DNA from: an uncultured Acidaminococcus sp. | GTDB lineage: Bacteria; Bacillota_C; Negativicutes; Acidaminococcales; Acidaminococcaceae | Direction: 5' to 3' | DNA length: 23,422 nt | Assembly (NCBI GenBank): GCA_900314165.1 | Contig: OMUE01000221.1 | Span: forward strand, 1-23,422 | Shown: piece after piece, positions 1 through 23,407 of the stretch | How positions within the stretch are numbered: position 1 is the stretch's first letter | Layout: each line of letters begins with the position of its first letter | Position numbers and translations under genes: made by a program | The notes under the pieces: model-generated | Told to the model about the DNA's origin: nothing | The model's database searches: none | Seen by the model: only the letters and a program-made list of their open reading frames with translations

Positions 1-26
1 AGTCCCGTCCCCGAAGGGACGAGACT
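1..26 (-). terminator. T-box terminator hairpin
   Basis: An 11-bp stem (with one G-T pair) closes on a TTCG tetraloop, with GTCCC TTCG GGGAC at its centre. It is the alternative fold to the antiterminator just upstream. The U-tract that should follow lies beyond the window edge, so the end is not visible. Confidence 0.85.
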
Positions 27-243
27 ATGAGCCCGTGGTACCACCCTTATGACAGCCTGTCAATAGACTGCCACTTTTCATGCTGTAACGGTCATGTTCC
101 GGGTCACCCTACTGCTGGTTCGGGAACCGGCTCCAGAGGGATGTTCAACGCTGCCTTCTCCTGCCCGGGCTCCCACTGTCCCCAAGTCGCTGTACCGACG
201 GCACCATCTACTGTCTCTTTCATAGCCTTATGATTTATAATTA
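1..243 (-). promoter_or_regulatory. T-box leader, probably phenylalanine-specific (target gene outside window)
   Basis: On the minus strand the region carries the T-box antiterminator core AGGGTGGTACCACGG (about 33-47), followed directly by a terminator hairpin. Upstream, the stem III type signature AGTAGG...CGG...CCGTTA is visible (about 71-112), and a GAAC...CTCTGGAGC stretch precedes it in the usual stem I order. In the position where the specifier triplet is expected stands TTC (124-126, minus strand), a Phe codon. The UGGU of the antiterminator bulge implies an uncharged tRNA with A73, which fits tRNA-Phe. T-boxes sense uncharged tRNA and allow read-through into synthetase or amino-acid genes. 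A SPOUT methyltransferase gene upstream followed by pheST is a known Firmicute arrangement, so pheS is the likely target. The T-box call is firm; the specifier assignment is inferred by alignment to the consensus by eye. Confidence 0.9.
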
Positions 244-293: not shown

Positions 294-453
294 CCGACGG
301 ACGGACGATAGCCGACTGACGACGGACGATAAAGGAACCACGCTTCGCGTGGAACATATTCAAACCGGCGGAAGACGGTTTTTTGTTCCTCTATCGGTCG
401 TCGTATGTCGTCCGTCGTATGTCGTTGTCCCTCTTTACTATTCGCTCTTCGCT
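294..453. repeat. Heptamer-armed inverted-repeat element A (GTCGTNN type)
   Basis: The right arm holds four in-phase heptamers of the form GTCGTNN (400-427). The left arm (about 296-337) holds the complementary CGAYNNN units with 7-bp periodicity (the same heptamer recurs at 303 and 324, 21 bp apart). The inner ends pair: 327-338 against 385-396, 11 of 12 positions. Between the arms are a perfect small hairpin CCACGC TTC GCGTGG (338-352) and a second one with stem AACCG/CGGTT (363-380). Beyond the GTCGTNN units, 439-452 contains two heptamers of the TCTTCGC type used by elements B-D, and these code for the end of the methyltransferase gene. Together with the T-box leader this accounts for the gene-free stretch 1-437. 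Confidence 0.75.
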
Positions 454-4300: not shown

Positions 4301-4329
4301 ATTATAACATAATAAAGCGAAGAGCGAAA
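4301..4329 (-). promoter_or_regulatory. Possible promoter of the hydroxy-acid oxidising gene
   Basis: A good -10 box TATAAT (4301-4306, minus strand) lies 35 bp before the ATG. With a 17-bp spacer the -35 position falls on TTTCGC inside the left heptamer arm of element B, a poor match to TTGACA. If the promoter is used, its -35 region is supplied by the repeat. Confidence 0.4.
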
Positions 4330-4495
4330 AGTAAAGAGCGAAGAGGGCTGCTCCGCAGCATCCTCTTTGTCCGCCCTTTTCAAGGGCGGGGGACCGGCGA
4401 AGCCGGTGGTGGGTTCATTTTAAGGATGGCAGTGGAAGCGTGCAGCGCACACCTCTTCGCTTTTCGCTCTTTGCTCTTCGCTCTTTGCTCTTCAC
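4317..4495. repeat. Heptamer-armed inverted-repeat element B (GCTYTTY type)
   Basis: The left arm is four heptamers (4319-4346, GAAGAGC-like). The right arm is six in-phase heptamers of GCTYTTY form (4452-4493), a reverse-complement match to the left. Inside lie four perfect small hairpins: GCTGC TCC GCAGC (4347-4359), CCGCCCTT TTC AAGGGCGG (4371-4389), ACCGGC GAA GCCGGT (4393-4407) and GTGC AGC GCAC (4440-4450). The right arm is two heptamers longer than in elements C and D, consistent with a 14-bp tandem duplication. It ends two bases before the A-tract of the sodium-pump operon terminator. No credible gene lies inside. Confidence 0.85.
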
Positions 4496-4496
4496 T

Positions 4497-4534
4497 AAAA
4501 AGAATAAACCGCCCTGCGGCGGCTTATTCTTTTA
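4497..4534 (-). terminator. Intrinsic terminator of the sodium-pump operon
   Basis: A 13-bp stem (4501-4513 with 4518-4530, one G-U pair on the minus strand) closes a 4-nt loop and runs into a T-tract on the minus strand. The stop codon of the small OadG-like gene lies in the stem. The stem is flanked by A/T runs on both sides, so it could also work on the other strand. Confidence 0.85.
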
Positions 4535-4646
4535 CCGGAAACATCTTCACTAACGCCATGGTCAGGCCCGCAAACAGGGCCATGATGACGAACACCAGAG
4601 GGTAGGCGATGATGAGCAGTTCTATAGCAGATTCTACACTATGCAT
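4524..4646 (-). CDS. OadG-related small membrane subunit of a Na+-pumping decarboxylase (40 residues)
   Basis: A 40-codon gene directly after the beta subunit gene. Its AAGGAGG ribosome site starts on the last base of the beta stop codon and sits 7 nt before the ATG. The protein has one membrane segment (about residues 9-34, ELLIIAYPLVFVIMALFAGL) and a short charged tail ending in VKE. This matches the membrane part of OadG/MmdD/GcdD gamma-delta subunits without their Pro/Ala linker. In the family these subunits bind the beta subunit and stabilise the complex. Good ribosome site, tight coupling and the terminator straight after the stop support a real gene. Confidence 0.85.
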   Translation of the reverse strand: MHSVESAIELLIIAYPLVFVIMALFAGLTMALVKMFPVKE

Positions 4647-4659
4647 GTCCGTGCCTCCT

Positions 4660-5811
4660 TTACTGCAGCACAGGAATGAGGGCCATGGCCAGGCCGCCGG
4701 CTACCACGGAGGCTACCTGCCCGGCTACATTCACGCCGATGGCCTGCTGGATGATGAAGTTCGTCGGGTCTTCCTTTAAGGCCATTTTAGAGATAACCCG
4801 TCCGGAAATGGGGAACGCGGAGATACCGCAGGCCCCGATCATGGGATTGATTTTCTTTTTCAGGAACAGGTTCACGAATTTAGCAAACAGCAGGCCCCCC
4901 ACCGTATCGAAGATGAAGGCCACAGCTCCCAGGCACAGGATTTTCAATACCTGGGCATTCAGCATGCTTTCTGCCGTCATGGTAGCGCCTACCGTAATGC
5001 CAAGCAGCAAAGTCACCAAGTTCGTCAATTCATCCTGGGCCGTCTGAGCCAGGCTGTCACAGACCCCGGACACCTTCAGCAGGTTGCCGAACATGAGAGC
5101 CCCAATGAGGGGTACAGAAATAGGAGCGATGACGCCCGCAATAAAGGTGACCATAAGTGGGAACAGGAACAGCACGGTCTGGGACACGGGCTTTTCTTCC
5201 TTATAGTGCATCTTGATTTTCCGCTCTTCCTTCGTGGTCAGCAATTTTACCACCGGAGGCTGGATGATGGGCACCAGGGACATATAGCAAAAGGCCGTGA
5301 CGGTCAACGGTGCCAGCAGGTTCCGGGCAAATTTCTGGGCCACAAAGATGGTGGTAGGCCCGTCCGCCGCCCCGATGATGCCGATAGACGCCGCTTCATT
5401 AAAGGGGAAACCCACCAGCGCAGCTGCCAGCGTTGCCACAAAGATGCCCAGATGGGCAGCCGCCGCGAACAGCATCATGTAAGGAGCCCGGATGAGCGGC
5501 GTAAAGTCACACATGGCGCCGATGCCGATGAAGATCAGTACCGGGAATAATTCGTTGGCGATGCCCGCCTGATACAGCACGGTGAGGAACCCCGGTTCTC
5601 CACCATCCACCGGCATGACAGCGAAATGGCCCGGCAGGTTGGCCAGGATGCAGCCCACCCCCATGGGGAACAGCAGCACCGGTTCATAGCCCTTGCGGAC
5701 CCCCAGGTAGATCAGGATGACCCCGATTGCGAACATGATCCAGGTATAAGGATCTCCCAGTGCAAAAACGCCTGCAAACAATTCATGAAAAACAGTACTT
5801 ACATTCGACAT
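4660..5811 (-). CDS. Na+-translocating decarboxylase beta subunit (OadB/MmdB/GcdB family)
   Basis: 383 residues, polytopic membrane protein, usual family length. It uses decarboxylation of carboxybiotin, transferred from an oxaloacetate, methylmalonyl-CoA or glutaconyl-CoA carboxyltransferase, to pump Na+ out of the cell. The signature GAADGPTTIF holds the essential Asp (Asp150), and NPMIGACGISAFPISGRV (322-339) holds the Asn/Ser residues of the Na+ path. The carboxyltransferase and biotin carrier subunits are not in this window, so the substrate is unresolved; glutaconyl-CoA is attractive if the host is Acidaminococcus. It has its own promoter and a leader with a terminator, and is translated with the small OadG-like gene downstream. 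Confidence 0.93.
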   Translation of the reverse strand: MSNVSTVFHELFAGVFALGDPYTWIMFAIGVILIYLGVRKGYEPVLLFPMGVGCILANLPGHFAVMPVDGGEPGFLTVLYQAGIANELFPVLIFIGIGAMCDFTPLIRAPYMMLFAAAAHLGIFVATLAAALVGFPFNEAASIGIIGAADGPTTIFVAQKFARNLLAPLTVTAFCYMSLVPIIQPPVVKLLTTKEERKIKMHYKEEKPVSQTVLFLFPLMVTFIAGVIAPISVPLIGALMFGNLLKVSGVCDSLAQTAQDELTNLVTLLLGITVGATMTAESMLNAQVLKILCLGAVAFIFDTVGGLLFAKFVNLFLKKKINPMIGACGISAFPISGRVISKMALKEDPTNFIIQQAIGVNVAGQVASVVAGGLAMALIPVLQ

Positions 5812-5950
5812 TGCTTCACCTCGTAGATAAACTGTGCCAGGTTCTGCTCCTTTACCAAAAAAAAGGGCCGGACATTTTTCAATGCCAGGTCCTCGCTAAC
5901 CTTCCTACCCCTGTGCCATACGCAGAAAGGAGATATTTAATTATTCATTG
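5812..5950 (-). promoter_or_regulatory. Structured leader of the sodium-pump operon: candidate riboswitch or attenuator
   Basis: The distance from the predicted transcription start (near 5950) to the ATG is about 139 nt. An intrinsic terminator sits in the middle (5856-5891), leaving about 55 nt upstream of it that could form a sensor. That part contains GGCACAGGGGTAGGAAGG, with AGCGAGG next to the terminator stem. The sequence CCTGGCA occurs once in the 5' side of the terminator stem (about 5882-5888) and again downstream of it (about 5832-5838), so the two copies could compete for the same partner. I cannot assign a known riboswitch class; Na+ sensing would suit the gene but is only a guess. 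Confidence 0.6.
5856..5891 (-). terminator. Terminator inside the sodium-pump leader
   Basis: On the minus strand GGACCTGGCAT (5891-5881) pairs with ATGTCCGGCCC (5874-5864) around a 6-nt loop, with two mismatches and one wobble, and is followed by eight T. It lies about 45 nt before the start codon, upstream of the ribosome site, so transcription of the operon must pass it. Confidence 0.75.
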
Positions 5951-5955
5951 TCAGA

Positions 5956-5984
5956 ATTATAAACCATTTTTGCTATTGATGCAA
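5956..5984 (-). promoter_or_regulatory. Promoter of the sodium-pump operon
   Basis: TTGCAT (5979-5984) and TATAAT (5956-5961) with a 17-bp spacer on the minus strand. It lies just downstream of the pth stop codon, so the pump genes form a separate transcription unit. Confidence 0.75.
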
Positions 5985-5998
5985 GTGGCTGACCGTCT

Positions 5999-6619
5999 TT
6001 AAGCCTGAGCCGGCTTGCCCTCCGGTTTATCGGCAGCCGTTTTTGGCTTCTTCTTGGCATTGAACTTTTCCATAAGTTCGCTGAGATCCGCTCCCTGCAT
6101 CCACATCTCCACCGCGTCCGCTGCTTTCGCCACAGCTTCCTGGATGAGCTTCAGGTCGTCTCCCCGGAAGGGGTGCAGCACGTGGCTGATGACAGCCTGT
6201 TCGTCATGAACGGGATGGCCGATGCCAATCTTGATGCGGGGATAGTTCTGACTGCCGATGGCGTTCTCTATGGATTTCAGTCCGTTATGACCGCCGGAAG
6301 AGCCTTTCCGGCGGATCCGCAGGGTGCCTACCGGCAGATCCATATCGTCCTGGACCACCAGGATTGCTTCCGGTTCTATGTGGTAGAAGCGGGCAAAATC
6401 ACTGACGGCTACACCGCTGTTATTCATATAGGTCGTAGGCTTGATGACGTAGCATTTCTCCGGCATCCGCTTTTCCAGATAAAAAGCATTATCCGCCTTT
6501 TTCCAGCTGCCGCCATCGGACCAGCGCTCAGCCAGGCAATCCGCCACCATAAAGCCGATATTGTGCCGGGTATTGGCATATTCCTTGCCGATATTTCCCA
6601 GGCAGGTGATGAGTTTCAT
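5999..6619 (-). CDS. pth: Peptidyl-tRNA hydrolase
   Basis: 206 residues from an ATG with an AAAGGAG site 9-10 nt upstream; the longer reading frame runs into repeat element C and is rejected. It cleaves the ester bond of peptidyl-tRNA released by stalled ribosomes. Key residues are present: Asn9, His19 (TRHNIGF), Asn66 (TYMNNSG), Asp92 (DDMDLPVG) and Asn112 (SSGGHNGLKS). Oddities: the usual GNPG near the N-terminus reads GNIG, and a Lys/Ala/Pro-rich tail (about 188-206) extends beyond the fold. Position after prs follows the Bacillus glmU-prs-ctc-pth order, with ctc (ribosomal protein L25) absent and element C in its place. Confidence 0.95.
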   Translation of the reverse strand: MKLITCLGNIGKEYANTRHNIGFMVADCLAERWSDGGSWKKADNAFYLEKRMPEKCYVIKPTTYMNNSGVAVSDFARFYHIEPEAILVVQDDMDLPVGTLRIRRKGSSGGHNGLKSIENAIGSQNYPRIKIGIGHPVHDEQAVISHVLHPFRGDDLKLIQEAVAKAADAVEMWMQGADLSELMEKFNAKKKPKTAADKPEGKPAQA

Positions 6620-6643
6620 GGGTTCTGACTCCTTTAGATAAAA

Positions 6644-6770
6644 GCGAAGAGATAAGAGCGAAGAGGCCGCTTGCGCGGAATCCGGCCCCCTCTGGGGGCG
6701 GAGGGCCACCGTAGGTGGTGGTGGGGCCGTGCAGCGCACACCTCTTCGCTTTTCGCTCTTTGCTCTTCAC
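6644..6770. repeat. Heptamer-armed inverted-repeat element C (GCTYTTY type)
   Basis: The left arm is three heptamers (6646-6666) and the right arm four (6741-6768), reverse complementary. Inside are hairpins CCGC TTGC GCGG (6667-6678), GCCCCC TCT GGGGGC (6685-6699), CCACC GTA GGTGG (6706-6718) and GTGC AGC GCAC (6729-6739), in the same order as in element B but with different stem sequences. The right arm ends two bases before the A-tract of the prs terminator. The element lies between prs and pth. Confidence 0.85.
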
Positions 6771-6771
6771 T

Positions 6772-6804
6772 AAAAAAGGGCTGTGACAAACACAGCCCTT
6801 TTTT
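6772..6804 (-). terminator. Intrinsic terminator of prs
   Basis: GGGCTGTG and CACAGCCC form a perfect 8-bp stem around a 5-nt loop, flanked by A6 and T6, so it can act on both strands. It begins a few bases after the prs stop codon. Confidence 0.9.
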
Positions 6805-6811
6805 CATTCAG

Positions 6812-7777
6812 TTATTCTTCAAACAGATGGCTTACGGACAGATGGTTGTAGATCCGCAGGATGGTTTCTGCCAGGATGGGTGCCACGGACAGTTGGGTAA
6901 TCTTCGGATGCTTCTTAGCAGGAGCCAGAGGAATCGTATTCGTGGTTACCAGTTCCTTGATATCGGATTGGGCAATCCGGCTCAGGGCAGGATCCGTCAG
7001 GATCGGGTGGGTTACGCAGGCATAGACTTCCTTGGCACCGAATTTCTTCAGAGCCTTGGCGCCTTCACACAGGGAACCGGCCGTATCTACGATATCGTCC
7101 ACCATGATGCAGATCTTGCCTTCTACATCACCAATCAGATTCATGACTTCGGCTACACCGGGTTCAGGGCGCCGTTTGTCGATGATGGCCAGACCGCATT
7201 CCAGGCGGGTAGCAAAGTTACGGGCACGGCTTACACCGCCCAGGTCAGGAGAAATGACCTTGATATCGGAAGGATCGAATCCTTTTTCCTTCATATAGTC
7301 AGCCATGATAGGGCCGCCGGGCATATGATCCACAGGAATGTCGAAGAAGCCCTGGATCTGGGCAGCGTGGAGATCCACAGTGACCAGACGGGTGATACCG
7401 GCTACGGTCATCAGATCAGCCATGAGTTTGGCAGTGATAGGTTCACGGCCTCTGGCTTTTCTGTCCTGACGGGCATAGCCATAGAAAGGAACTACAGCTG
7501 TAATGTGTCTGGCACTAGCCCGTTTGAAGGCATCTGCCATAATCAGCAGTTCCATAATATTATCATTTACAGCAGGACCGCAGGTCGGTTGTACAATAAA
7601 CACATCCTTGCCACGGACACTTTCGTTAATCATAACCTGTACTTCACCGTTATTGAAACGGTTGATGACAGCGTCGCCTACCGTTGTCCCCAGATATGCT
7701 GCAATTTCTCTCGCCAGATCAGGATTGGCGTTGCCGGAAAATATAGCCATTTCGTCGGCAGATTTTTCACCCAACAT
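6812..7777 (-). CDS. prs: Ribose-phosphate pyrophosphokinase (PRPP synthetase)
   Basis: 321 residues, class I PRPP synthetase, which makes PRPP from ribose 5-phosphate and ATP for purine, pyrimidine, His, Trp and NAD synthesis. Visible are the catalytic flexible loop (RQDRKARGREP, 103-113), the DLHAAQIQGFF segment with His137, and the PRPP-binding loop DDIVDTAGSL (227-236). A GGGGGT site precedes the ATG. It has its own promoter and terminator although it follows glmU, as in Bacillus. Its product is the known effector of PurR, encoded two genes upstream. Confidence 0.97.
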   Translation of the reverse strand: MLGEKSADEMAIFSGNANPDLAREIAAYLGTTVGDAVINRFNNGEVQVMINESVRGKDVFIVQPTCGPAVNDNIMELLIMADAFKRASARHITAVVPFYGYARQDRKARGREPITAKLMADLMTVAGITRLVTVDLHAAQIQGFFDIPVDHMPGGPIMADYMKEKGFDPSDIKVISPDLGGVSRARNFATRLECGLAIIDKRRPEPGVAEVMNLIGDVEGKICIMVDDIVDTAGSLCEGAKALKKFGAKEVYACVTHPILTDPALSRIAQSDIKELVTTNTIPLAPAKKHPKITQLSVAPILAETILRIYNHLSVSHLFEE

Positions 7778-7820
7778 GCTTTTACTACCCCCAGGTTCTT
7801 AGTCTAGAATTCTAAAGAAA

Positions 7821-7849
7821 AGTATACAACTCTATTTCTTTTGTGACAA
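7821..7849 (-). promoter_or_regulatory. Promoter of prs
   Basis: TTGTCA (7844-7849) and TATACT (7821-7826) with a 17-bp spacer on the minus strand, in the short glmU-prs gap. Transcription would start near 7814, giving a leader of about 37 nt. Confidence 0.75.
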
Positions 7850-7853
7850 CCGC

Positions 7854-9227
7854 TTATTTTTTGTTTCTGTATTTTTCAGCCCAGTCCGGAATATTGACCT
7901 GTTTGCCCCGGGCCACGCCCAGTGCGTTGGCAGGCACATCTTTTGTAATGGTGCTGCCGGCAGCGATGTAGCTGCCCTTGCCGATGGTCACAGGAGCCAC
8001 CAGGTTGCTGTTGCAGCCTACAAAGGCATCGTCTTCGATGACTGTGCGTTGTTTGATCTTACCGTTGTAATTGACCGTAATGGTACCGCAGCCCATGTTC
8101 ACGTTGCTGCCGATATCGCTGTCCCCGATGTACTGCAGGTGCGGCAGCTTCGTGCCCACGCCTACATTGGAGTTCTTCACTTCTACGAAGTTGCCCATCT
8201 TCACATGGTCTGCAATGACCGTATTGGGCCGCAGGTGGTCGTAAGGTCCCATATGGACTTCATTGCCCACCTGGCAGTCATGAGCATAGACAAACTGCAT
8301 GACCGTGCCATTGCCTACCTTCACATTCGTAAAGCGGACCTGAGGCCCGATTTCACAGTCCTCGCCGATTTCCGTATCCCCTTCCAGCCAGGTGCAGGGA
8401 TACAGTACCGTGTCCCGTCCTACCTTCACGCCTTTTTCCACATACGTCGTAGCAGGATCCATGACGGAGACCCCTTCGTCCATGAGACGGCCTACGATGC
8501 GGCTGTTCATGATGCGCTGGGCTTCAGCCAGCTGCCGGCGGGAGTTTACGCCCATAACCATGTCGAAGTCCCCGGTTTTGATGCCGGCTACCCGACGGCC
8601 TTTTGTCAGGCAGATACTCAGGATATCCGTCAGATAATATTCGCCCTGGGCATTGTCGTTGGACAGGTTGGCCAGCAGTTCAAACAGCAAAGGCAGTTCT
8701 ACACAGTAGATGCCCGTATTGATTTCCCGGATCTTCCGCTGCTCCGGCGTAGCGTCTTTTTCTTCCACGATGCCCGTGACCTGACCGGCTTCGTCCCGCA
8801 GGATCCGGCCATAGCCGAAGGGATCCGGGGCCGTAGCTGTCAATACGCTGACACCGGCACCACTCTTCAAGTGGCTTTCGTAGAATTTTTTCAGTTCAGC
8901 CCCTTCCAGAAGAGGCGTATCGCCGCACAGGATCAGGGCTGTACCTTTAGCATCCCCCAGCAGGTCTTTTGCCTGCAGCACTGCATGGCCTGTGCCCAGC
9001 TGTTCCGGCTGGATAGCCACCCGGGCACGGGTACCTACAAACTCCGTAACTTTTTCAGAACCGAAGCCCACAATGACGATTTCGTCATCCGCACCTGCTT
9101 CCTCGGCAGCGTCCATGACGTGTTCCAGCATGGGTTTGCCACACAGTTTGTGCAGTACCTTGGGTAGTTTTGATTTCATCCGCGTTCCCTTGCCTGCAGC
9201 AAGGATGATTGCCGCCAAATCCGACAT
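7854..9227 (-). CDS. glmU: Bifunctional UDP-GlcNAc pyrophosphorylase / glucosamine-1-P acetyltransferase
   Basis: 457 residues, full length. It acetylates glucosamine-1-phosphate and then couples it to UTP, making UDP-GlcNAc for peptidoglycan. The N-terminal pyrophosphorylase begins with AAIILAAGKGTRMKS and continues with the GTGHA and DTPLL segments. The C-terminal left-handed beta helix contains the hexapeptide repeats and the NYNG active-site region. An AGGAGG site lies 8 nt before the ATG. It follows purR by about 20 nt, so ispE-gntR-purR-glmU look like one operon. Confidence 0.97.
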   Translation of the reverse strand: MSDLAAIILAAGKGTRMKSKLPKVLHKLCGKPMLEHVMDAAEEAGADDEIVIVGFGSEKVTEFVGTRARVAIQPEQLGTGHAVLQAKDLLGDAKGTALILCGDTPLLEGAELKKFYESHLKSGAGVSVLTATAPDPFGYGRILRDEAGQVTGIVEEKDATPEQRKIREINTGIYCVELPLLFELLANLSNDNAQGEYYLTDILSICLTKGRRVAGIKTGDFDMVMGVNSRRQLAEAQRIMNSRIVGRLMDEGVSVMDPATTYVEKGVKVGRDTVLYPCTWLEGDTEIGEDCEIGPQVRFTNVKVGNGTVMQFVYAHDCQVGNEVHMGPYDHLRPNTVIADHVKMGNFVEVKNSNVGVGTKLPHLQYIGDSDIGSNVNMGCGTITVNYNGKIKQRTVIEDDAFVGCNSNLVAPVTIGKGSYIAAGSTITKDVPANALGVARGKQVNIPDWAEKYRNKK

Positions 9228-9246
9228 TCTTAAAGCCTCCTAGTGA

Positions 9247-10059
9247 TTACAGTAATTCCGGTGCAACGTCTATAGCCTTAGCTGCTTCGTCCACGGATTT
9301 CAAAGTCAGCAGGGAAGCATATTCTTCTACGGTCTTCTTGACCGGTTCTTTCGTAGAGATAAACAGGTAAGTGCCCACAACCGTAGCGCCTACTTCGGCT
9401 GCCAGTTCCTGCATGCCCCGGGCCGTGCCACCACCACGCATGAAATCATCTACGACCAGGACCCGTGCCTTGGGAGGCAGAGCCTTTCTGGGCAGGGACA
9501 TGGACTGGATTTTTTTGGAAGAGCCGCTGAGATAGCTGATACTTACCGCAGGTCCTTCCGTAATCCGGGCTTCTTTCCGGGCCATGACCATGGGGATGTT
9601 GAATGCCCGGGCCGTACTGAGAGCCAGAGGAATACCTTTCGTTTCTACAGTCATGACGTATTCCGGCTTCAGTTCCAGCGTCCGCTGCATAATGATTTCT
9701 CCCAAACGAGAGCAGATCTGAGGATCAAACAGCAGGTCGTTCATATAGATCATGCCGCCGGGCAGCACTCTTTGAGGATCTTTCAATTTCTGAGCCAATT
9801 CCCCCAGGAATTGGTTATCTGCTTCGTTCGTATGATAGGGAATGAAGCGTACACCGCCGCTGGCCCCGGCCACCGTTTCGATGATGCCCAGATCATAGGC
9901 TGCCAGTCCGTTCCGAACCGTCTGCACGTCTTCACTTAATGTAGATTTAGCGACTGTGAACTTTTCGCAAAAATACGAAAAGGGAAATAACTGGAATGGA
10001 TGATCGTTCAATTCTTTGGTTAATGCTACGATACGCTCCAGACGCTTAATTCTTGCCAT
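9247..10059 (-). CDS. purR: Purine operon repressor PurR (Bacillus type)
   Basis: 270 residues: an N-terminal winged helix (about 1-75) followed by a phosphoribosyltransferase-like domain. The PRPP-binding motif VLVVDDFMRGGGTARG (200-215) is intact. In Bacillus, PRPP binding releases the repressor from pur promoters, so high PRPP means derepression. The start overlaps the end of the gntR gene by 14 nt, which suggests translational coupling. The ispE-purR-glmU-prs grouping is conserved in Firmicutes. I did not find a clear PurBox upstream of genes in this window. Confidence 0.95.
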   Translation of the reverse strand: MARIKRLERIVALTKELNDHPFQLFPFSYFCEKFTVAKSTLSEDVQTVRNGLAAYDLGIIETVAGASGGVRFIPYHTNEADNQFLGELAQKLKDPQRVLPGGMIYMNDLLFDPQICSRLGEIIMQRTLELKPEYVMTVETKGIPLALSTARAFNIPMVMARKEARITEGPAVSISYLSGSSKKIQSMSLPRKALPPKARVLVVDDFMRGGGTARGMQELAAEVGATVVGTYLFISTKEPVKKTVEEYASLLTLKSVDEAAKAIDVAPELL

Positions 10060-10774
10060 TAGCCACTACCTTCTTTCCTTTCTTGTCCGTAGGGATATTG
10101 GTTTGTTCTTCAATGACGCGCAGCAGGGTCCGTTCTGCATTTTCCATATGGACCCGAACTGCTTCCTGAGCCTTCTTGGCGTTGTGTTTTGCAATGGCAT
10201 CCACAATGGCCGTGTGTTCTTCCAACATGACTTCCAGACGGCCTGGATACGGCATGGAGCTGCCACGGATGGCCGTGATCTGCTCCCGCAGGTTGTTGAT
10301 GATGGTCATGCAGCGGCGGTTGCCACTGGCTCGATAGATTATATCATGAAATGCCGTATCGTTTTCAATAATTTTCGGATAATTCTTTTCTGCAACCAAA
10401 GGTCTGTCAACTTCTATGAGGCGGCGCATTTCAGCCACTTCCTCATCCGTAATCTTTTCGGCAGCCAGGCCGGCAGCCAGTACGTCCAGAGCCGTACGGA
10501 CTTCGTAGACCTCGTTGATGTCTTTGATAGAGATGTTGGCTACATAAGCCCCTCTCCGGGGAATCATGACGACCAGGCCTTCCAGTTCCATCTTACGGAT
10601 AGCTTCCCGGACAGGGGTCCGGCTGACGCCCATCTCCTCAGCCAGCTGCAGTTCCATAAGGCGCATGCCAGCAGGGAACTGCCCACTGATAATAGCCTGC
10701 CGGATATTTTCTACAACGACCTCCCGCAGAGGTTTGTAAGAATCCAAAGGAATTTGTTTCAACCGTTCAACCAT
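10046..10774 (-). CDS. GntR/FadR-family transcriptional regulator (FCD domain)
   Basis: 242 residues. The ATG is chosen over a TTG two codons upstream because the GGGAGGGG site is 8 nt from the ATG but too close to the TTG. An N-terminal winged helix (about 15-75; PVREAIRKMELEGLV recognition helix) is followed by an all-helical FCD domain. Metal or ligand residues are visible as the Asp and His of DTAFHDI, the His of EEHTAIV and the His of VRVHMEN. The ligand is unknown; FCD regulators commonly sense carboxylic acids. It lies 2 nt after the ispE stop and overlaps purR. A GntR gene in this position is not part of the Bacillus order. Confidence 0.92.
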   Translation of the reverse strand: MVERLKQIPLDSYKPLREVVVENIRQAIISGQFPAGMRLMELQLAEEMGVSRTPVREAIRKMELEGLVVMIPRRGAYVANISIKDINEVYEVRTALDVLAAGLAAEKITDEEVAEMRRLIEVDRPLVAEKNYPKIIENDTAFHDIIYRASGNRRCMTIINNLREQITAIRGSSMPYPGRLEVMLEEHTAIVDAIAKHNAKKAQEAVRVHMENAERTLLRVIEEQTNIPTDKKGKKVVANGKN

Positions 10775-10776
10775 TT

Positions 10777-11637
10777 TCAATACCCCTCCCGCACTGTATG
10801 TGCTGTTTCTATTTGTAACTCTCTATATTTCTGTTTCAACAGGCCGGCAGCCTTAGCAGCTGCTTCAGCCTGGAAAAAGATGCCAAATACAGTAGGCCCG
10901 CTGCCGCTCATCATGGCCTTCGCAGCGCCCAGTTCCTGCAATTCCGTCAATAATCCCTGCAGGATGGGATGAGCCGGCACCGTCACCAGCTCCAGGTCAT
11001 TGCCCATAAGGGCCAGGACATCCGGAAGCTTTTGAGAAACAATCGCCTGTTCCAGTTTGTCTATATCCGGACTGTTTTTCGGCGGCTTCCGATCGATTTC
11101 CCCGTAAGCCCAGGCCGTGGAGACCTCCAAAGCGGCTGGTTTTACAAGGACCAGGTGAAAATCTGGCACGGCCGGCAGCACTGTCATCAGTTCGCCCCTC
11201 CCCCGGGCTCTCTGAGTGCCTCCGGCAATACAGAATGGCACGTCGCTGCCGATGGTGGCGGCCACCGTCTCCAGCTGCTGTCGGGGCAGAGGCTCTCCAT
11301 AGTACTGGTTCAGCAGCTTCAGCACTGCTGCTGCATCCGTACTGCCCCCTGCCAGTCCTGCGGCTACGAAGATCTGTTTTTCGCCATGAAGATGAACATT
11401 CAGGTCACAGCCGGTTGCCTTTTGGAAGGCTAAAGCTGCCTTCACCATCAGGTTCCGCTTGTCACAGGGCAGCTCTGCCAGATCCGTGGTCACGGCAAAG
11501 GAAGCCGCCGGCTCCAGTGTAATAGTATCGGCCAGGGATATGCTCTGCATGATCATATCCACCCCGTGGTAACCATCCGGTCGTCGGCCCAGGACCTTCA
11601 GGCCCAGATTAATTTTTGCATAGGCATGCACAATCAT
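10777..11637 (-). CDS. ispE: 4-diphosphocytidyl-2-C-methyl-D-erythritol kinase
   Basis: 286 residues, a GHMP kinase of the non-mevalonate (MEP) isoprenoid pathway, phosphorylating CDP-ME. The N-terminal AYAKINLGLKVLGRRPDGYH is diagnostic, the ATP-binding glycine motif VAAGLAGGSTDAAAVL is intact, and the C-terminal MSGSGPTVFGIF is the third GHMP motif. The start ATG has GAAGGTGA about 8 nt upstream; a frame open for 32 more codons upstream covers the promoter and is rejected. It is the first gene of the ispE-gntR-purR-glmU cluster. Confidence 0.96.
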   Translation of the reverse strand: MIVHAYAKINLGLKVLGRRPDGYHGVDMIMQSISLADTITLEPAASFAVTTDLAELPCDKRNLMVKAALAFQKATGCDLNVHLHGEKQIFVAAGLAGGSTDAAAVLKLLNQYYGEPLPRQQLETVAATIGSDVPFCIAGGTQRARGRGELMTVLPAVPDFHLVLVKPAALEVSTAWAYGEIDRKPPKNSPDIDKLEQAIVSQKLPDVLALMGNDLELVTVPAHPILQGLLTELQELGAAKAMMSGSGPTVFGIFFQAEAAAKAAGLLKQKYRELQIETAHTVREGY

Positions 11638-11668
11638 GGTCTTTTCACCTTCAGTGTATTTTGTATCC

Positions 11669-11697
11669 ATTTTACCGTTATTTTTTAATTGTAGCAA
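11669..11697 (-). promoter_or_regulatory. Promoter of the ispE-gntR-purR-glmU operon
   Basis: TTGCTA (11692-11697) and TAAAAT (11669-11674) with a 17-bp spacer on the minus strand. The leader to the ispE ATG would be about 25 nt. Confidence 0.6.
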
Positions 11698-11755
11698 GAG
11701 ATTTATGAACATTATTTTAACTTTTTTCCACAAACGTTCCGTCTTCTTGATTTTC

Positions 11756-11784
11756 TATCATTTATGATTAAAAAGTGTTACAAT
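11756..11784 (+). promoter_or_regulatory. Possible promoter of the YitT-family gene
   Basis: TACAAT (11779-11784) with TATCAT 17 bp upstream, or alternatively TAATAT (11784-11789) with TTTATG (11761-11766) at 17 bp. Both are imperfect; the region is AT-rich and divergent from the ispE promoter. Confidence 0.4.
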
Positions 11785-11813
11785 AATATCACTCTAATCA
11801 AGGAGGTCATCCT

Positions 11814-12698
11814 ATGCCAAAACTGATCCGCAAATATTTCTGGACAACTCTGGGCTGTTTTCTGATGGCAGTAGCTGTGAACAGCTTCTTCGTCCGCCAT
11901 CATTTCATCGCCGGAGGGATTGCCGGTTTCTCCATGATCCTGTACTACCTGTTCCACTGGCCTGCCGGTATCGTCAGCTTCATCCTGAATATCCCCTTGT
12001 TCTATCTGGCCTATCGCTACATGAGCCGTACATTCTGTATTGACAGTCTCATGGGCACCCTGATCTTTTCCGTCATCCTGGACGCCACAGTCTTTCTCCA
12101 GGAACTGGTAGTCGTAAACGACCCCATCCTGTCTTGTATCGCAGGCGGCGTAGTGGAAGGTCTGGGGGCTGCCCTGGTATACCGTTCGGAAGCGTCCACA
12201 GGAGGTGTGGACATCATCGGCTTCATGGCCAAAAAGTATAAAGGCATCAGTGTCAGCACTACGAACTTCGCTTTCAACGTAATCCTGATGCTAGCCGCTA
12301 TGGTGTTCTTAGGCATTGAGCCCGTGCTGTACACCATGGTCATGTTTTTCATCTCTTTTAAAGCCACGAACTTCTTCATGGTGGGCTTTGATTATAAGAA
12401 AACCATCATGATCATCAGCAAGGAGCCGGACAAGATTGCCGACCGGATCATGCGGGAGGTCCAGAGAGGTGTTACATTCCTCCATGGGGAAGGTGGCTTT
12501 ACTCACAACGATACGAAAGTCCTCATGGTCGTCATCAAACTGACCCAGCTGAATCATATCAAGAAGATTATCGAACAGGAAGACCCCATGGCCTTCGTCA
12601 CCGTCCAGGATGCCAATGACGTATTCGGCCGCGGCTTCACAGAGCCGGACGTGGTGCTGGAGTTTCCGGAAGAAAACAAAGCGAAAAGCGAAGAGTGA
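11814..12698 (+). CDS. YitT family membrane protein (DUF161 + DUF2179)
   Basis: 294 residues, AAGGAGG site 7 nt before the ATG. The first about 210 residues form several hydrophobic segments with the family features (AGGIAGFS near residue 33, STGGVDIIGF near 128). The C-terminal DUF2179 domain (about 215-285) is soluble, with HGEGGFT and the VFGRGF end. YitT-like proteins are of uncertain function; transport roles have been proposed. The final residues KAKSEE and the stop codon are encoded by the left heptamer arm of repeat element D. It converges on gltS. Confidence 0.9.
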   Translation: MPKLIRKYFWTTLGCFLMAVAVNSFFVRHHFIAGGIAGFSMILYYLFHWPAGIVSFILNIPLFYLAYRYMSRTFCIDSLMGTLIFSVILDATVFLQELVVVNDPILSCIAGGVVEGLGAALVYRSEASTGGVDIIGFMAKKYKGISVSTTNFAFNVILMLAAMVFLGIEPVLYTMVMFFISFKATNFFMVGFDYKKTIMIISKEPDKIADRIMREVQRGVTFLHGEGGFTHNDTKVLMVVIKLTQLNHIKKIIEQEDPMAFVTVQDANDVFGRGFTEPDVVLEFPEENKAKSEE

Positions 12699-12857
12699 TG
12701 AGCGAAGAGGGCGCGCTGCGCAGGCCTTAAAACAACGATGTGACATATCATCATTTCAAACAATGCTCTTATCCCATACAATTGATAATAGTCGTACTGC
12801 TGCAACAAGATTGTGCGGAGCACACCTCTTCGCTTTTCGCTCTTTGCTCTTCGCTAC
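12681..12857. repeat. Heptamer-armed inverted-repeat element D (GCTYTTY type)
   Basis: The left arm is four heptamers (12683-12710) and the right arm four (12825-12852), reverse complementary. It shares the first hairpin (GCGC GCT GCGC, 12711-12721) and the last (GTGC GGA GCAC, 12813-12823) with elements B and C. The middle is AT-rich filler without the two GC-rich hairpins. The left arm overlaps the end of the YitT gene; the right arm ends just before the A-tract of the gltS terminator. Confidence 0.85.
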
Positions 12858-12893
12858 AAAAAAAACCTGCCGCCAACCGCGGCAGGTTTTTTT
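12858..12893 (-). terminator. Intrinsic terminator of gltS
   Basis: AACCTGCCGC and GCGGCAGGTT form a 10-bp perfect stem around a 5-nt loop, extended by A/T runs on both sides (A8 and T7). It serves the minus-strand gltS and could also stop yitT transcripts. Confidence 0.9.
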
Positions 12894-21655: not shown

Positions 21656-22477
21656 GTGCATCAATATCTGTTCTTCATTGGTTCTGTCCCCGTACGTATG
21701 TACGGGATCATGTTGTGCATCGCTATCTTCATGGCCACCTCCGTAGCCTATTTCCTGGCCTGGCGGGACGGCCGGGGCTGGGAGAAATACCTGCCGGACA
21801 TCGGCATCTACGGCGGCTTCTGCGGCCTCATCGGGGCCCGGCTTTGGGATGTATTCTTCTTTGACTGGGCGTATTACAGCAACCATCTGTTAGAGATTCC
21901 CTTTGTCTGGCAGGGCGGCATGGCCATTCAGGGTGGCATCATCGGCGGCGTCACAGGCGGCGCCATCTACTGCTGGAAGCACGGGGTTGACTGGATCGAG
22001 ATGCTGGACGTCATTGCCCCGGCCCTTTTCATCGGCCAATCCGTAGGCCGCATGGCGAACCTGTTGAACGGGGATGCCTTCGGGGCTCCTACGGGCGGTG
22101 ATTTCGGCATCGTATACCCGGCAGGGACACTGGCCCGCAGCACCTATGGCACTGCGCCCCTGTGGCCTGCAGAAGTCTGGGAAGGCCAGGTGGACGTGAT
22201 CCTGTTCTGCCTGCTGCTGTTATTCCAGACCACGCGCCCTAAGAAGGGCCAGACCTGCTGCCTGTATGTGATGCTCTACAGCATCCTGCGGTTCTGCCTG
22301 GAATTTTTGCGGGGCGACTATGTAAAGCCCCTGTTCCTGGGTCTCAAGAGTGCCCAGGCCACCAGCCTGATCTTCTTCCTTTTTGCGTTAGGACTGTTTG
22401 TGATTGCGGGATTGGAGAAATACCCGGGTGTAAAGAAAAAAGAAGAAAGAAAAAAGAATAGACGTCAGATTGGTTAG
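21656..22477 (+). CDS. lgt: Prolipoprotein diacylglyceryl transferase
   Basis: 273 residues from a GTG start, with AAAGGAAG about 8 nt upstream. Multi-pass membrane enzyme that transfers diacylglycerol from phosphatidylglycerol to the lipobox Cys of prolipoproteins. The Lgt signature GRMANLLNGDAFG (131-143) holds the essential Arg132 (E. coli Arg143), and EFLRGDY (216-222) holds the second essential Arg. The residue aligned by eye with E. coli His103 is Gln92 (GGMAIQGG). The C-terminal tail is Lys/Arg-rich, and its last codons (RRQIG) lie in the left arm of element E. Confidence 0.95.
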   Translation: MHQYLFFIGSVPVRMYGIMLCIAIFMATSVAYFLAWRDGRGWEKYLPDIGIYGGFCGLIGARLWDVFFFDWAYYSNHLLEIPFVWQGGMAIQGGIIGGVTGGAIYCWKHGVDWIEMLDVIAPALFIGQSVGRMANLLNGDAFGAPTGGDFGIVYPAGTLARSTYGTAPLWPAEVWEGQVDVILFCLLLLFQTTRPKKGQTCCLYVMLYSILRFCLEFLRGDYVKPLFLGLKSAQATSLIFFLFALGLFVIAGLEKYPGVKKKEERKKNRRQIG

Positions 22478-22634
22478 CTAAGGTAAGTTATCTTATCGGA
22501 AGATTTTCTAAACAAAAAGGAATGTGAAGCATATAAATACAAGCCTCACATTCCTTTTTCATTTATTTTGACAAGAAGCAGAGTCAATTTTAGTGTACTA
22601 CCACGCTGACGTCTATCATCTGACATCTGACGTC
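22459..22634. repeat. Heptamer-armed inverted-repeat element E (TGACRTC type)
   Basis: The right arm holds four in-phase heptamers (22607-22634): TGACGTC, one diverged TATCATC, TGACATC and TGACGTC. The short left arm TAGACGTCAGAT (22459-22470) is complementary to it. The arms cover the last codons of both convergent genes (lgt and the ADP-ribosylglycohydrolase). A long terminator hairpin lies between them. The architecture matches elements A-D, but the heptamer is different. Confidence 0.65.
22514..22559. terminator. Bidirectional terminator between convergent genes
   Basis: A 17-bp stem with one mismatch (22514-22530 with 22543-22559, core GGAATGTGA/TCACATTCC) closes a 12-nt loop and is flanked by A5 and T5. 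It serves lgt on the plus strand and the ADP-ribosylglycohydrolase on the minus strand. Confidence 0.9.
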
Positions 22635-23407
22635 TCAATAAATTCCCTCATCTCCACCGTATAGAACTTACGTCCTGCCTGCAGAATCGGGTCCGGGATC
22701 CCGTAGAACGGTTCTGCAATGCTGCCGGCAATGGCGGCCTGGGTATCTGCATCAGCTCCCAGGCTGATGGCGTTGCGGATGGCATCTTCAAAATCCGTGC
22801 TGTCTAAAAAGCAGGCAAGGGCTTCCGGCACGGAACCGTCGCAGGTAGTATCCCCGTGATATGTGTCACGGATTTCGTCAATAGTAAAATTCAGGGGATA
22901 AAATTGTTCCAGATAGGTCCGGATATCCTTCTTCGAAGCCTTATGGCGGGCCAGGAACACGGCACCGGCTACAGCTTTAGCTGCATCATAGGAGCTTTCT
23001 TCATTGTGGCTGACTGCTGCCGACCAGACTGCCAGCTGTTGGACCTGTTCTATGGACTCCCCGAACCAGCCCGCAGGGGACACCCGCATGGCAGCCCCGT
23101 TGCCAAAGCTGCCATAGGGCTGGGGGTTATCCTGAAACAGCCACTGTTTGAATTTATGGCCGAAGCCGGCATGAGGATATTTGCGGCCAAGGGCCTGCAT
23201 ATATTTGATGAGCAGTGGCAAAACGACTACCCCGTCGTCCAGCCTGCCGGCAGCTTTCGCATCCCGGAAGGCCATGGCCACGGCAAGTGTCATAAAAGAG
23301 TCGTCTGTCGCATGGCAGCGGGGTTGGAACAAGGGGAAATCCTTCGTCTTCTTCCGCTTCCATTCGTAAATAGAGCCCACAACATCACCGATAAACGCGC
23401 TTTCCAT
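22616..23407 (-). CDS. ADP-ribosylglycohydrolase family protein
   Basis: 263 residues, AGGAGG site 6 nt before the ATG near the window edge. The all-helical DraG/ARH fold is indicated by GDVVGS (7-12), TDDSF (34-38), GNGAAMRVSP (102-111) and SLGADADTQAAIAGS (215-229), which supply the Asp residues that bind two Mg2+. Members remove ADP-ribose from proteins or small molecules, or hydrolyse related N-glycosides; the substrate here is unknown. No toxin or nitrogenase gene is visible nearby. The final residues (TSDVR) are encoded by heptamers of element E. Confidence 0.92.
   Translation of the reverse strand: MESAFIGDVVGSIYEWKRKKTKDFPLFQPRCHATDDSFMTLAVAMAFRDAKAAGRLDDGVVVLPLLIKYMQALGRKYPHAGFGHKFKQWLFQDNPQPYGSFGNGAAMRVSPAGWFGESIEQVQQLAVWSAAVSHNEESSYDAAKAVAGAVFLARHKASKKDIRTYLEQFYPLNFTIDEIRDTYHGDTTCDGSVPEALACFLDSTDFEDAIRNAISLGADADTQAAIAGSIAEPFYGIPDPILQAGRKFYTVEMREFIETSDVR

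What the first reader, a model, noticed from the sequence alone, without database searches (positions are those of the whole stretch)
4317..12857. A dispersed family of intergenic inverted repeats whose arms are tandem heptanucleotides
Seen directly: elements B (4319-4493), C (6646-6768) and D (12683-12852) have arms built from in-phase 7-bp units of the form GCTYTTY, reverse-complemented on the other side of a 74-114 bp core. Right arms start with the same four heptamers in the same order. Ordinary REP/MITE-like elements have unique arms, not arms made of microsatellite units. Short heptanucleotide tandem repeats are known in cyanobacteria, but I know of no described inverted-repeat element built this way in Negativicutes. 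Inference: a mobile or replicating structured DNA/RNA element with a slippage-driven arm.
Basis: seen in the sequence. Interest (0 to 1): 0.8.

Follow-up and report, generated by a model that had tools for sequence, protein, structure and literature searches.

The report
Heptamer-armed hairpin repeats at bacterial terminators
Small DNA hairpins whose arms are stacks of a 7-letter unit sit next to transcription stop signals in a gut bacterium, and related species carry dozens of similar elements written in different 7-letter words, which suggests a rapidly changing class of tiny repeats that spreads through and rewrites gene ends.

Summary
The three inverted repeats are real: 18 GCTYTTY-array hits against 0 in 100 shuffles. 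B and C have the same right arm except for exactly 14 bp, two heptamers. The window also holds similar elements with other heptamers, A and E. The host is Acidaminococcus-like (Negativicutes); no genome of it is held, so copies cannot be counted. Relatives show the same kind: 118 period-7 arrays in 274 kb of Dialister sp. UBA7295, against 1 of period 8 and 0 of periods 10-13. Acidaminococcus genomes carry species-biased heptamer words at 33-41 loci. In one relative a cassette of two hairpins around 3-5 heptamers recurs at 16 of 20 loci read; at 8 of 11 such sites close relatives have a plain hairpin instead. B-D each abut a terminator, and five Acidaminococcus genomes lack C at its site. Best reading: dispersed, non-autonomous, terminator-associated foldback cassettes whose arms change by 7-bp slippage; the mobilising step is unknown. 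Inverted heptamer-array pairs are in print for Xanthomonas and Geobacter, so this is a new variant, not a new kind.

The parts
4316..4346 (+). element B, left heptamer arm (AGCGAAG units)
4347..4451 (+). element B core with inner hairpins (GCTGCTCCGCAGC; GTGCAGCGCAC)
4452..4496 (+). element B, right heptamer arm, two units longer than C
4498..4536 (-). intrinsic terminator-like hairpin (oadB side) directly next to B
6639..6666 (+). element C, left heptamer arm
6667..6740 (+). element C core
6741..6771 (+). element C, right heptamer arm
6772..6805 (-). terminator of prs directly next to C; a terminator-like hairpin at this place is also seen in five Acidaminococcus genomes that lack C
12678..12710 (+). 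element D, left heptamer arm; encodes the C-terminus and stop of the YitT-like ORF
12711..12824 (+). element D core
12825..12856 (+). element D, right heptamer arm
12857..12893 (-). terminator of gltS directly next to D
294..331 (+). element A, left arm, different heptamer (GACGACN)
392..428 (+). element A, right arm (GTCGTMY)
429..453 (+). lone half-array of the B/C/D heptamer; encodes the C-terminus of the RlmB-like ORF
22461..22470 (+). element E, short left arm (GACGTCAGAT)
22603..22635 (+). element E, right arm (RTCTGAC units)

Best explanation
B, C and D are copies of a short, non-coding, dispersed foldback cassette that lodges at intrinsic terminators. Each half is a heptamer array facing a small GC hairpin, and two halves face each other across a variable core. 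Shown: dispersed copies; absence of element C from the orthologous spacer of relatives; adjacency to terminators; arm length changing by whole heptamers between near-identical copies; and a parallel cassette family in a relative that, at most sites that could be judged, stands where related species have one plain hairpin. Inferred: copies spread by copying a hairpin cassette into a terminator site, either by an unknown enzyme acting in trans on hairpins or by replication template switching between hairpins that share A-tract and T-tract edges. Polymerase stalling at the hairpin then duplicates or deletes 7-nt units, so arms grow, shrink and drift into species-biased heptamer dialects. The elements probably persist because they sit in 3' untranslated space and may act as extra two-way terminators.
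For: Arms not chance: 18 hits, 0 in 100 shuffles. Period 7 stands out: 118 arrays in 274 kb of Dialister G007, with period 8: 1 and periods 10-13: 0; 43 in 117 kb of G350; 9 and 10 per 100 kb in G011 and G013. Inverted-repeat scan: 15 of 141 inverted repeats have period-7 arms, 3 period 9, none any other period from 4 to 12, 123 none. Slippage: B minus 14 bp = C; 3, 4 or 5 heptamers in 2, 12 and 2 of 16 cassettes in G011. Dispersal: 41 loci of CTAGTGA arrays in G011, 33 loci of GTCAATG arrays in A. fermentans, reversed-pattern control 0 in the nine Acidaminococcaceae genomes searched. Terminators: an array lies within 10 bp of a terminator-like hairpin in 31 of 118 (G007; random positions outside long ORFs 227 of 2420), 9 of 26 (four Acidaminococcus-group genomes; 43 of 660) and 3 of 7 (window; 0 of 140). 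Site comparison: 5 of 11 G011 sites have a match spanning both flanks in A. fermentans and 3 of these also in A. massiliensis; 8 of 8 such comparisons show one plain terminator-like hairpin (26-49 nt between the flanks) in place of the 124-135-nt cassette. Judged by either flank, 8 of 11 sites show a plain hairpin within 8 nt of the edge in at least one of the two genomes, and the cassette was found at none. A-run and T-run lengths match those of A. fermentans exactly at 2 of 5 sites (permutation p 0.009; summed difference p 0.022; n small, chosen after seeing the data). Element C absent from the pth-prs spacer of five Acidaminococcus genomes.
Against: No target-site duplication could be defined in the window: 4-5-bp A-rich direct repeats can be read at B, C and D, but only by including part of the arm. 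No convincing transposase link. In the window the terminator is still there beside the element, unlike the replacement seen in G011, so the two may not move alike. At 2 of the 11 G011 sites (L238, L243) the relatives show no hairpin at the flank edge, and one (L239) could not be judged. G350, the second richest genome, shows no terminator association (0 of 43; control 83 of 920). The rule that the G-rich strand leads into a hairpin holds in Dialister (81 against 9) but not elsewhere (G011 4 against 4, G013 3 against 5, G008 0 against 4, window 1 against 3, G350 19 against 12). Terminator stems differ between relatives even where neither has a heptamer element, so replacement may be ordinary terminator turnover. 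Three of four other Dialister-group genomes had no arrays in the stretches read.
Confidence: 0.5

Rival explanations
1. Local growth, no mobility: hairpins (mostly terminators) stall the replication fork, 7-nt duplications arise beside them, and strand switching across the hairpin copies one arm onto the other. Similar heptamers in one genome come from gene conversion between loci.
For: Period 7 with many unrelated heptamers in one genome; arrays beside hairpins in Dialister and Acidaminococcus; exact 7/14-bp length steps; a foldback array inside a 16S rRNA gene in G350. MacGregor 2015 (PMC4679880, passage read) reports an earlier proposal that 7 nt is the length that interacts with the polymerase.
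Against: 16 of 20 G011 loci share the whole cassette with both hairpins and a conserved non-repeat spacer; the window right ends share core sequence beyond the array. Local growth cannot give that without copying between loci.
Confidence: 0.25
2. MITE or REPIN-like element mobilised by a specific (Y1/HUH or DDE) transposase, with the heptamers as tandem binding sites.
For: Inverted halves each with a small hairpin and a GG(TG)-type foot; multi-copy; mostly intergenic; Y1 transposases occur in 8 of 13 relatives searched. Arrays of at least 3 units lie in the few kb around 4 of 16 distinct Y1 places (5 arrays; 4.3 expected from the density in each genome; outside Dialister 5 against about 2 expected).
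Against: No GTAG-type foot, no clear duplication, no array in the loci around the two Y1 genes of the array-rich Dialister G007, no clear excess overall, and heptamers differ completely between elements of one genome, which one binding protein would hardly recognise.
Confidence: 0.15
3. Function first: the arrays are kept as regulatory sites (two-way terminator or insulator, Rho-loading site on the C-rich strand, or binding site of an RNA- or DNA-binding protein).
For: Enrichment at terminators in Negativicutes; the C-rich strand leaves the element on both sides (sequence). A regulator-site reading was proposed for Geobacter (PMC2700814, passages read).
Against: No common heptamer, patchy presence at orthologous sites, no transcript data here.
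Confidence: 0.1

Closest known systems
GGGNATC heptamer arrays of Xanthomonas (Rehm et al. 2015, PMC4692102; passages read)
   Same: 7-bp unit, mostly intergenic, dispersed; 70 (Xcc) and 75 (Xac) cases of two convergent arrays close together forming an inverted repeat
   Different: [quoted passage not shown] here many heptamers per genome without G-runs in the B/C/D unit, a hairpin core, terminator neighbours and high turnover
Paired tandem hepta-/octanucleotide sites of Geobacter metallireducens (PMC2700814; passages read, supplements not)
   Same: tandem 7- or 8-nt repeats in pairs on opposite strands at variable distance; several consensus classes in one genome
   Different: described as regulator binding sites, some at fixed distance from insertion sequences; no terminator or cassette structure reported in the passages read
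Heptamer-built P6b stem of the Nostoc trnL group I intron (PMC4476775; abstract and passages read)
   Same: a stem whose two sides are tandem degenerate heptamers, length change by whole units, repeated replacement of one heptamer class by another
   Different: inside an intron at one site, not dispersed
TAACTGA direct repeats of Beggiatoaceae, Cyanobacteria, Bacteroidetes (PMC4679880; abstract and passages read)
   Same: intergenic heptamers; the Dialister NTCAGTT arrays include the reverse complement of the same word
   Different: almost all direct (169 sets and one inverted in the Maribeggiatoa genome), mostly just upstream of start codons
Foldback (FB/TU/Galileo) elements of animals (recalled; only listing rows seen)
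   Same: inverted repeats built of short tandem repeats
   Different: eukaryotic, longer units and arms, transposase-related
REP/REPIN (PMC3116915, PMC3733652; listing rows only, rest recalled)
   Same: short inverted pairs of small hairpins, high copy, intergenic
   Different: REPs carry a conserved tetranucleotide foot and no tandem array

Membership tests
Convergent heptamer-array pairs (Xanthomonas type) | tandem 7-bp units on both sides, G-rich strands converging | tested here: met
   B and D pass the period-7 inverted-repeat scan, C does not; the G-rich AGCGAAG strand reads inward from both sides
Convergent heptamer-array pairs (Xanthomonas type) | G-tracts allowing a quadruplex | tested here: not met
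   the unit GAAGAGC has no G-run of 3
REP/REPIN | tetranucleotide foot (GTAG and relatives) next to the hairpin | tested here: not met
   the feet are GAGG(TG)-like; the defining foot is recalled
REP/REPIN | a dedicated Y1 (RAYT) transposase gene flanked by the repeat | tested here: inconclusive
   none among the 20 window ORFs searched, ten per library; arrays near 4 of 16 distinct Y1 places in relatives, 5 against 4.3 expected, none at the two in G007; own genome not held
MITE | terminal inverted repeats | tested here: met
MITE | target-site duplication | tested here: inconclusive
   4-5-bp A-rich repeats at the ends depend on where the end is drawn
Foldback element | inverted repeats made of tandem short repeats | tested here: met
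Foldback element | transposase of the P/Mutator kind | not tested
   no genome of the host is held
Described RNA family (Rfam 15) | match at gathering score | tested here: not met
   no match over B, C or D reaches gathering; the weak matches there are far below it

The most novel reading that the evidence does not exclude
Intrinsic terminators of these bacteria are exchangeable parts: hairpin cassettes carrying heptamer arrays copy themselves into terminator positions by replacing the resident hairpin between its A-tract and T-tract, and the heptamer words are rewritten across a genome in concert, so that each species has its own dialect. This would be a form of hairpin-directed mobility without a classical transposon end.
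Probability: 0.25. Interest if true: 0.85.

Novelty: new variant of a known kind. Interest (0 to 1): 0.6.

Why it matters
Heptanucleotide repeats have been noted as over-represented in bacteria without an agreed cause (passages in PMC4679880 and PMC4692102). Acidaminococcus and Dialister offer near-identical dispersed copies differing by single heptamers, species dialects, and sites with and without the element in related species. That makes the two open questions, why seven and how such repeats spread, testable. If the terminator replacement is general, gene ends in these bacteria turn over by a route not usually considered.

Tried and rejected
Exact 24-mer of the shared right arm: 0 hits in genome contigs and viral contigs; degenerate version 0 in viral contigs. 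GCTYTTY arrays: 1 of 10 relatives' genomes (an A. fermentans array of the close word GAAGAGT upstream of a start codon, without a paired arm) and 3 of 398 genomes of the phylum sample, those three not obviously related. Known RNA family: none at gathering over the elements. Plasmid-borne: one 41-nt match in one record only. Y1 transposase link: unclear. DNA uptake sequence was considered and set aside, because many heptamers per genome do not fit one uptake word (inference). Better pairing of own arms: not clear. General rule that the G-rich strand leads into a hairpin: true in Dialister, failed elsewhere. First attempts to pair arrays by majority heptamer gave few inverted pairs (2) and mostly same-direction neighbours (28 same direction, 9 converging, 0 diverging); replaced by the inverted-repeat scan. 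Of 34 phylum-sample genomes read at contig C1, 20 and 14, two were without bases (L140, L193); several arrays beside hairpins were seen in G350 and G440 and one isolated array each in four others (L135, L141, L192, L195). A search for a printed account of 16S V1 insertions gave no paper; a search with Dialister and heptamer terms listed no Dialister paper on this (ten of 23 shown).

Literature limits: no account of inverted heptamer elements in Negativicutes was seen in the listings of searches, which cover open-licence PMC papers only and show capped lists.
Full report
What is there. The window is a bacterial chromosome segment. Its YitT-like protein is 58-65% identical to the proteins of six Acidaminococcus loci, and its gene order matches theirs, so it belongs to or near Acidaminococcus (Negativicutes). 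No genome of it is held. B, C and D are as described: arms of 7-bp units GCTYTTY on the right and their reverse complement on the left, 18 matches against none in 100 shuffles. The right arms are almost the same sequence, and B differs from C by exactly 14 bp. Left arms are more degenerate. The predicted folds pair the arms (B -92, C -76, D -72 kcal/mol), but own arms pair hardly better than foreign ones.

More than one word. Element A (about 294-428) has the same architecture with the heptamer GTCGTMY, and beside it stands half an array of the B/C/D word. Element E (about 22461-22635) uses RTCTGAC around a terminator-like hairpin. So the heptamer is not the identity of the element.

Relatives. 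A lag-identity scan (at least 3.5 units, 80% identity) of 274 kb of Dialister sp. UBA7295 found 118 period-7 arrays and none in one Markov-resampled control. Periods 8, 10, 11, 12 and 13 gave 1, 0, 0, 0 and 0, period 9 gave 10, period 6 gave 20 (6 in the control), period 5 gave 14 (6), period 4 gave 71 (69) and period 3 gave 475 (198). Per sample, period 7 gave 5 (G012), 10 (G013), 2 (G003, A. massiliensis) and 9 (G011) per 100 kb, 43 in 117 kb (G350), 3 in 66 kb (G440), 4 in 81 kb (G008, D. succinatiphilus), none in 139 kb of three other Dialister-group genomes, and 2 in 263 kb of 17 phylum-sample loci. Seven arrays were seen in 60 kb of A. fermentans. Heptamers differ widely within a genome (RTTCGTG, NTCAGTT, RTTAGCM, RTGCGGG and others in Dialister). 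In Dialister the arrays often read into (A)AGGTG and a GC hairpin followed by T-runs; the stronger hairpin lies on the 3' side of the G-rich strand in 81 of 97 arrays and on the other side in 9, but this rule did not hold in the other genomes.

Inverted pairs. An ungapped inverted-repeat scan (arms of at least 24 nt, 76% complementary, loop up to 200) over 13 samples gave 141 inverted repeats. The arms of 15 were periodic with period 7 (10 of 39 in G007, 1 of 9 in G013, 2 of 13 in G350, 2 of 5 in the window), 3 with period 9 (G007), and no other period from 4 to 12. In G350 one such foldback lies inside the 16S rRNA gene (Rfam bacterial SSU match over L148 1-223, 109.6 bits), in the place of helix 6 of the V1 region (helix name from my knowledge), which recalls the heptamer-built P6b stem of Nostoc introns (PMC4476775).

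Terminators. B, C and D each end at the A-tract of a terminator. An array lies within 10 bp of a terminator-like hairpin in 31 of 118 cases in G007 (random positions outside long ORFs 227 of 2420), 9 of 26 in four Acidaminococcus-group genomes (43 of 660), 3 of 7 in the window (0 of 140), but 0 of 43 in G350 (83 of 920).

Gain and change at fixed sites. Between pth and prs, where the window has element C, five Acidaminococcus genomes show no heptamer element: four (L003-L006) have a plain hairpin in a spacer of 61-90 bp by match coordinates and one (L002) has a 165-bp spacer with other hairpins; the more distant L008 (Acidaminococcaceae) has no heptamer arm either. Between yitT and gltS several relatives have none, but G011 has an independent one with the word GGGTCNY, again at the terminator. 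At another site A. fermentans and G011 both carry a foldback behind the terminator, but in different words, while the three others viewed, G013, A. intestini (G005) and A. provencensis (G001), have none there (in the last two only one flank matched). Whole-genome counts show dialects (up to 2 mismatches, overlapping hits, 11 genomes): GTCAATGx3: 55 in A. fermentans, 13 in G011, 5 in A. massiliensis, 0 in the other eight; GTCAACGx3: 36 in G011, 12 in A. massiliensis, 11 in A. fermentans, 0 in the rest; CTAGTGAx3: 138 in G013, 94 in G011, 16 in A. fermentans, 3 in A. massiliensis, 0 in the rest. Reversed-pattern controls were 0 except 5 in Dialister G007 for the last. Clustered, these are 41 CTAGTGA loci in G011 and 33 GTCAATG loci in A. 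fermentans. The arm of element D also encodes the last residues of YitT (AKSEE), and the two closest homologues (96% and 83% identical) end in AKSEK and AKSEE. For the half-array at rlmB, 2 of the 5 closest homologues end in AKSE. So some copies seem older than the split of these lineages.

A cassette caught in a relative. I read 20 of the 41 G011 loci (positions up to 1.17 Mb, four loci in that range not taken). In 16 of 20 the array stands inside one conserved cassette: hairpin, spacer, heptamers, hairpin, with 3, 4 or 5 heptamers in 2, 12 and 2 copies. Eleven of the 16 met a strict pattern with clean edges (124-139 nt), and their flanks were used as a query. Five of the 11 sites gave a match spanning both flanks in A. 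fermentans and three of these also in A. massiliensis. In these 8 comparisons the relative has one plain terminator-like hairpin, 26-49 nt between the flanks. Judged by either flank alone, a plain hairpin stands within 8 nt of the edge at 7 sites in A. fermentans and 7 in A. massiliensis, 8 of 11 sites in all (L226, L228, L229, L232, L237, L240, L242, L244). At L243 neither relative has a hairpin at the edge; at L238 the A. fermentans match stops 30 nt short and shows none; at L232 in A. fermentans a hairpin lies near but the match stops 21 nt short; L239 could not be judged; the A. massiliensis match at L240 lies in a repeat and was not counted. The cassette itself was found at no edge. The lengths of the bordering A- and T-runs equal those of A. 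fermentans at 2 of 5 sites (permutation p 0.009). The number is small and the test was thought of after seeing the alignments.

How it may work. Shown: dispersal as a cassette, unit-wise length change, lineage-specific presence, association with terminators in Negativicutes. Inferred: the spreading step. A trans-acting enzyme and replication template switching between hairpins with similar edges both fit. The window elements leave the terminator intact and G011 replaces it, so the two families may differ in this step. Around 16 distinct Y1 transposase places of relatives there are 5 arrays against 4.3 expected, 5 against about 2 if Dialister is left out, which decides nothing. Why seven remains open.

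Novelty. Inverted convergent heptamer arrays are known in Xanthomonas (70 and 75 cases, PMC4692102), paired tandem repeats on opposite strands in Geobacter (PMC2700814), direct TAACTGA arrays in several phyla (PMC4679880). I read passages, not whole papers. New here, as far as my searches reach: the Negativicutes cases, many words per genome, the terminator association, the species dialects, and the cassette-for-terminator sites.

Noticed in passing
window 12-232, minus strand: T-box leader-like match, 91.1 bits, just under the gathering score of 93.
   Followed up: no
L148 51-240 (genome G350): 16S rRNA gene with a heptamer foldback inserted in the V1 helix; further arrays lie just upstream of it.
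   Followed up: partly
L184 13355-13580 (A. fermentans): A separate palindromic intergenic repeat; the 1301-nt query holding it matched 90 places in A. fermentans, 55 in A. massiliensis and 54 in G011, many of them over this stretch.
   Followed up: no
window 12678-12698 and 438-453: Heptamer arms supply the last codons and the stop of the yitT-like and rlmB-like genes.
   Followed up: yes
window 22430-22462: Purine-rich period-7 stretch inside the 3' end of the lgt-like ORF.
   Followed up: no
L092 and L099 (Dialister G007): Two IS200-like Y1 transposase genes, each shortly downstream of a terminator-like hairpin; one frame has a stop inside.
   Followed up: no
L093 and L097 (G002, G013): Heptamer arrays a few hundred bases from Y1 transposase genes, one of about 13 units.
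   Followed up: partly
L246-L254 against G011 sites: Terminator stems at orthologous sites differ almost completely between A. fermentans and A. massiliensis although the flanks are conserved.
   Followed up: partly
G011:C1:1568674-1568799: A long CTAGTGA/CTAGAGA array of about 18 heptamers with a 14-bp super-period.
   Followed up: no
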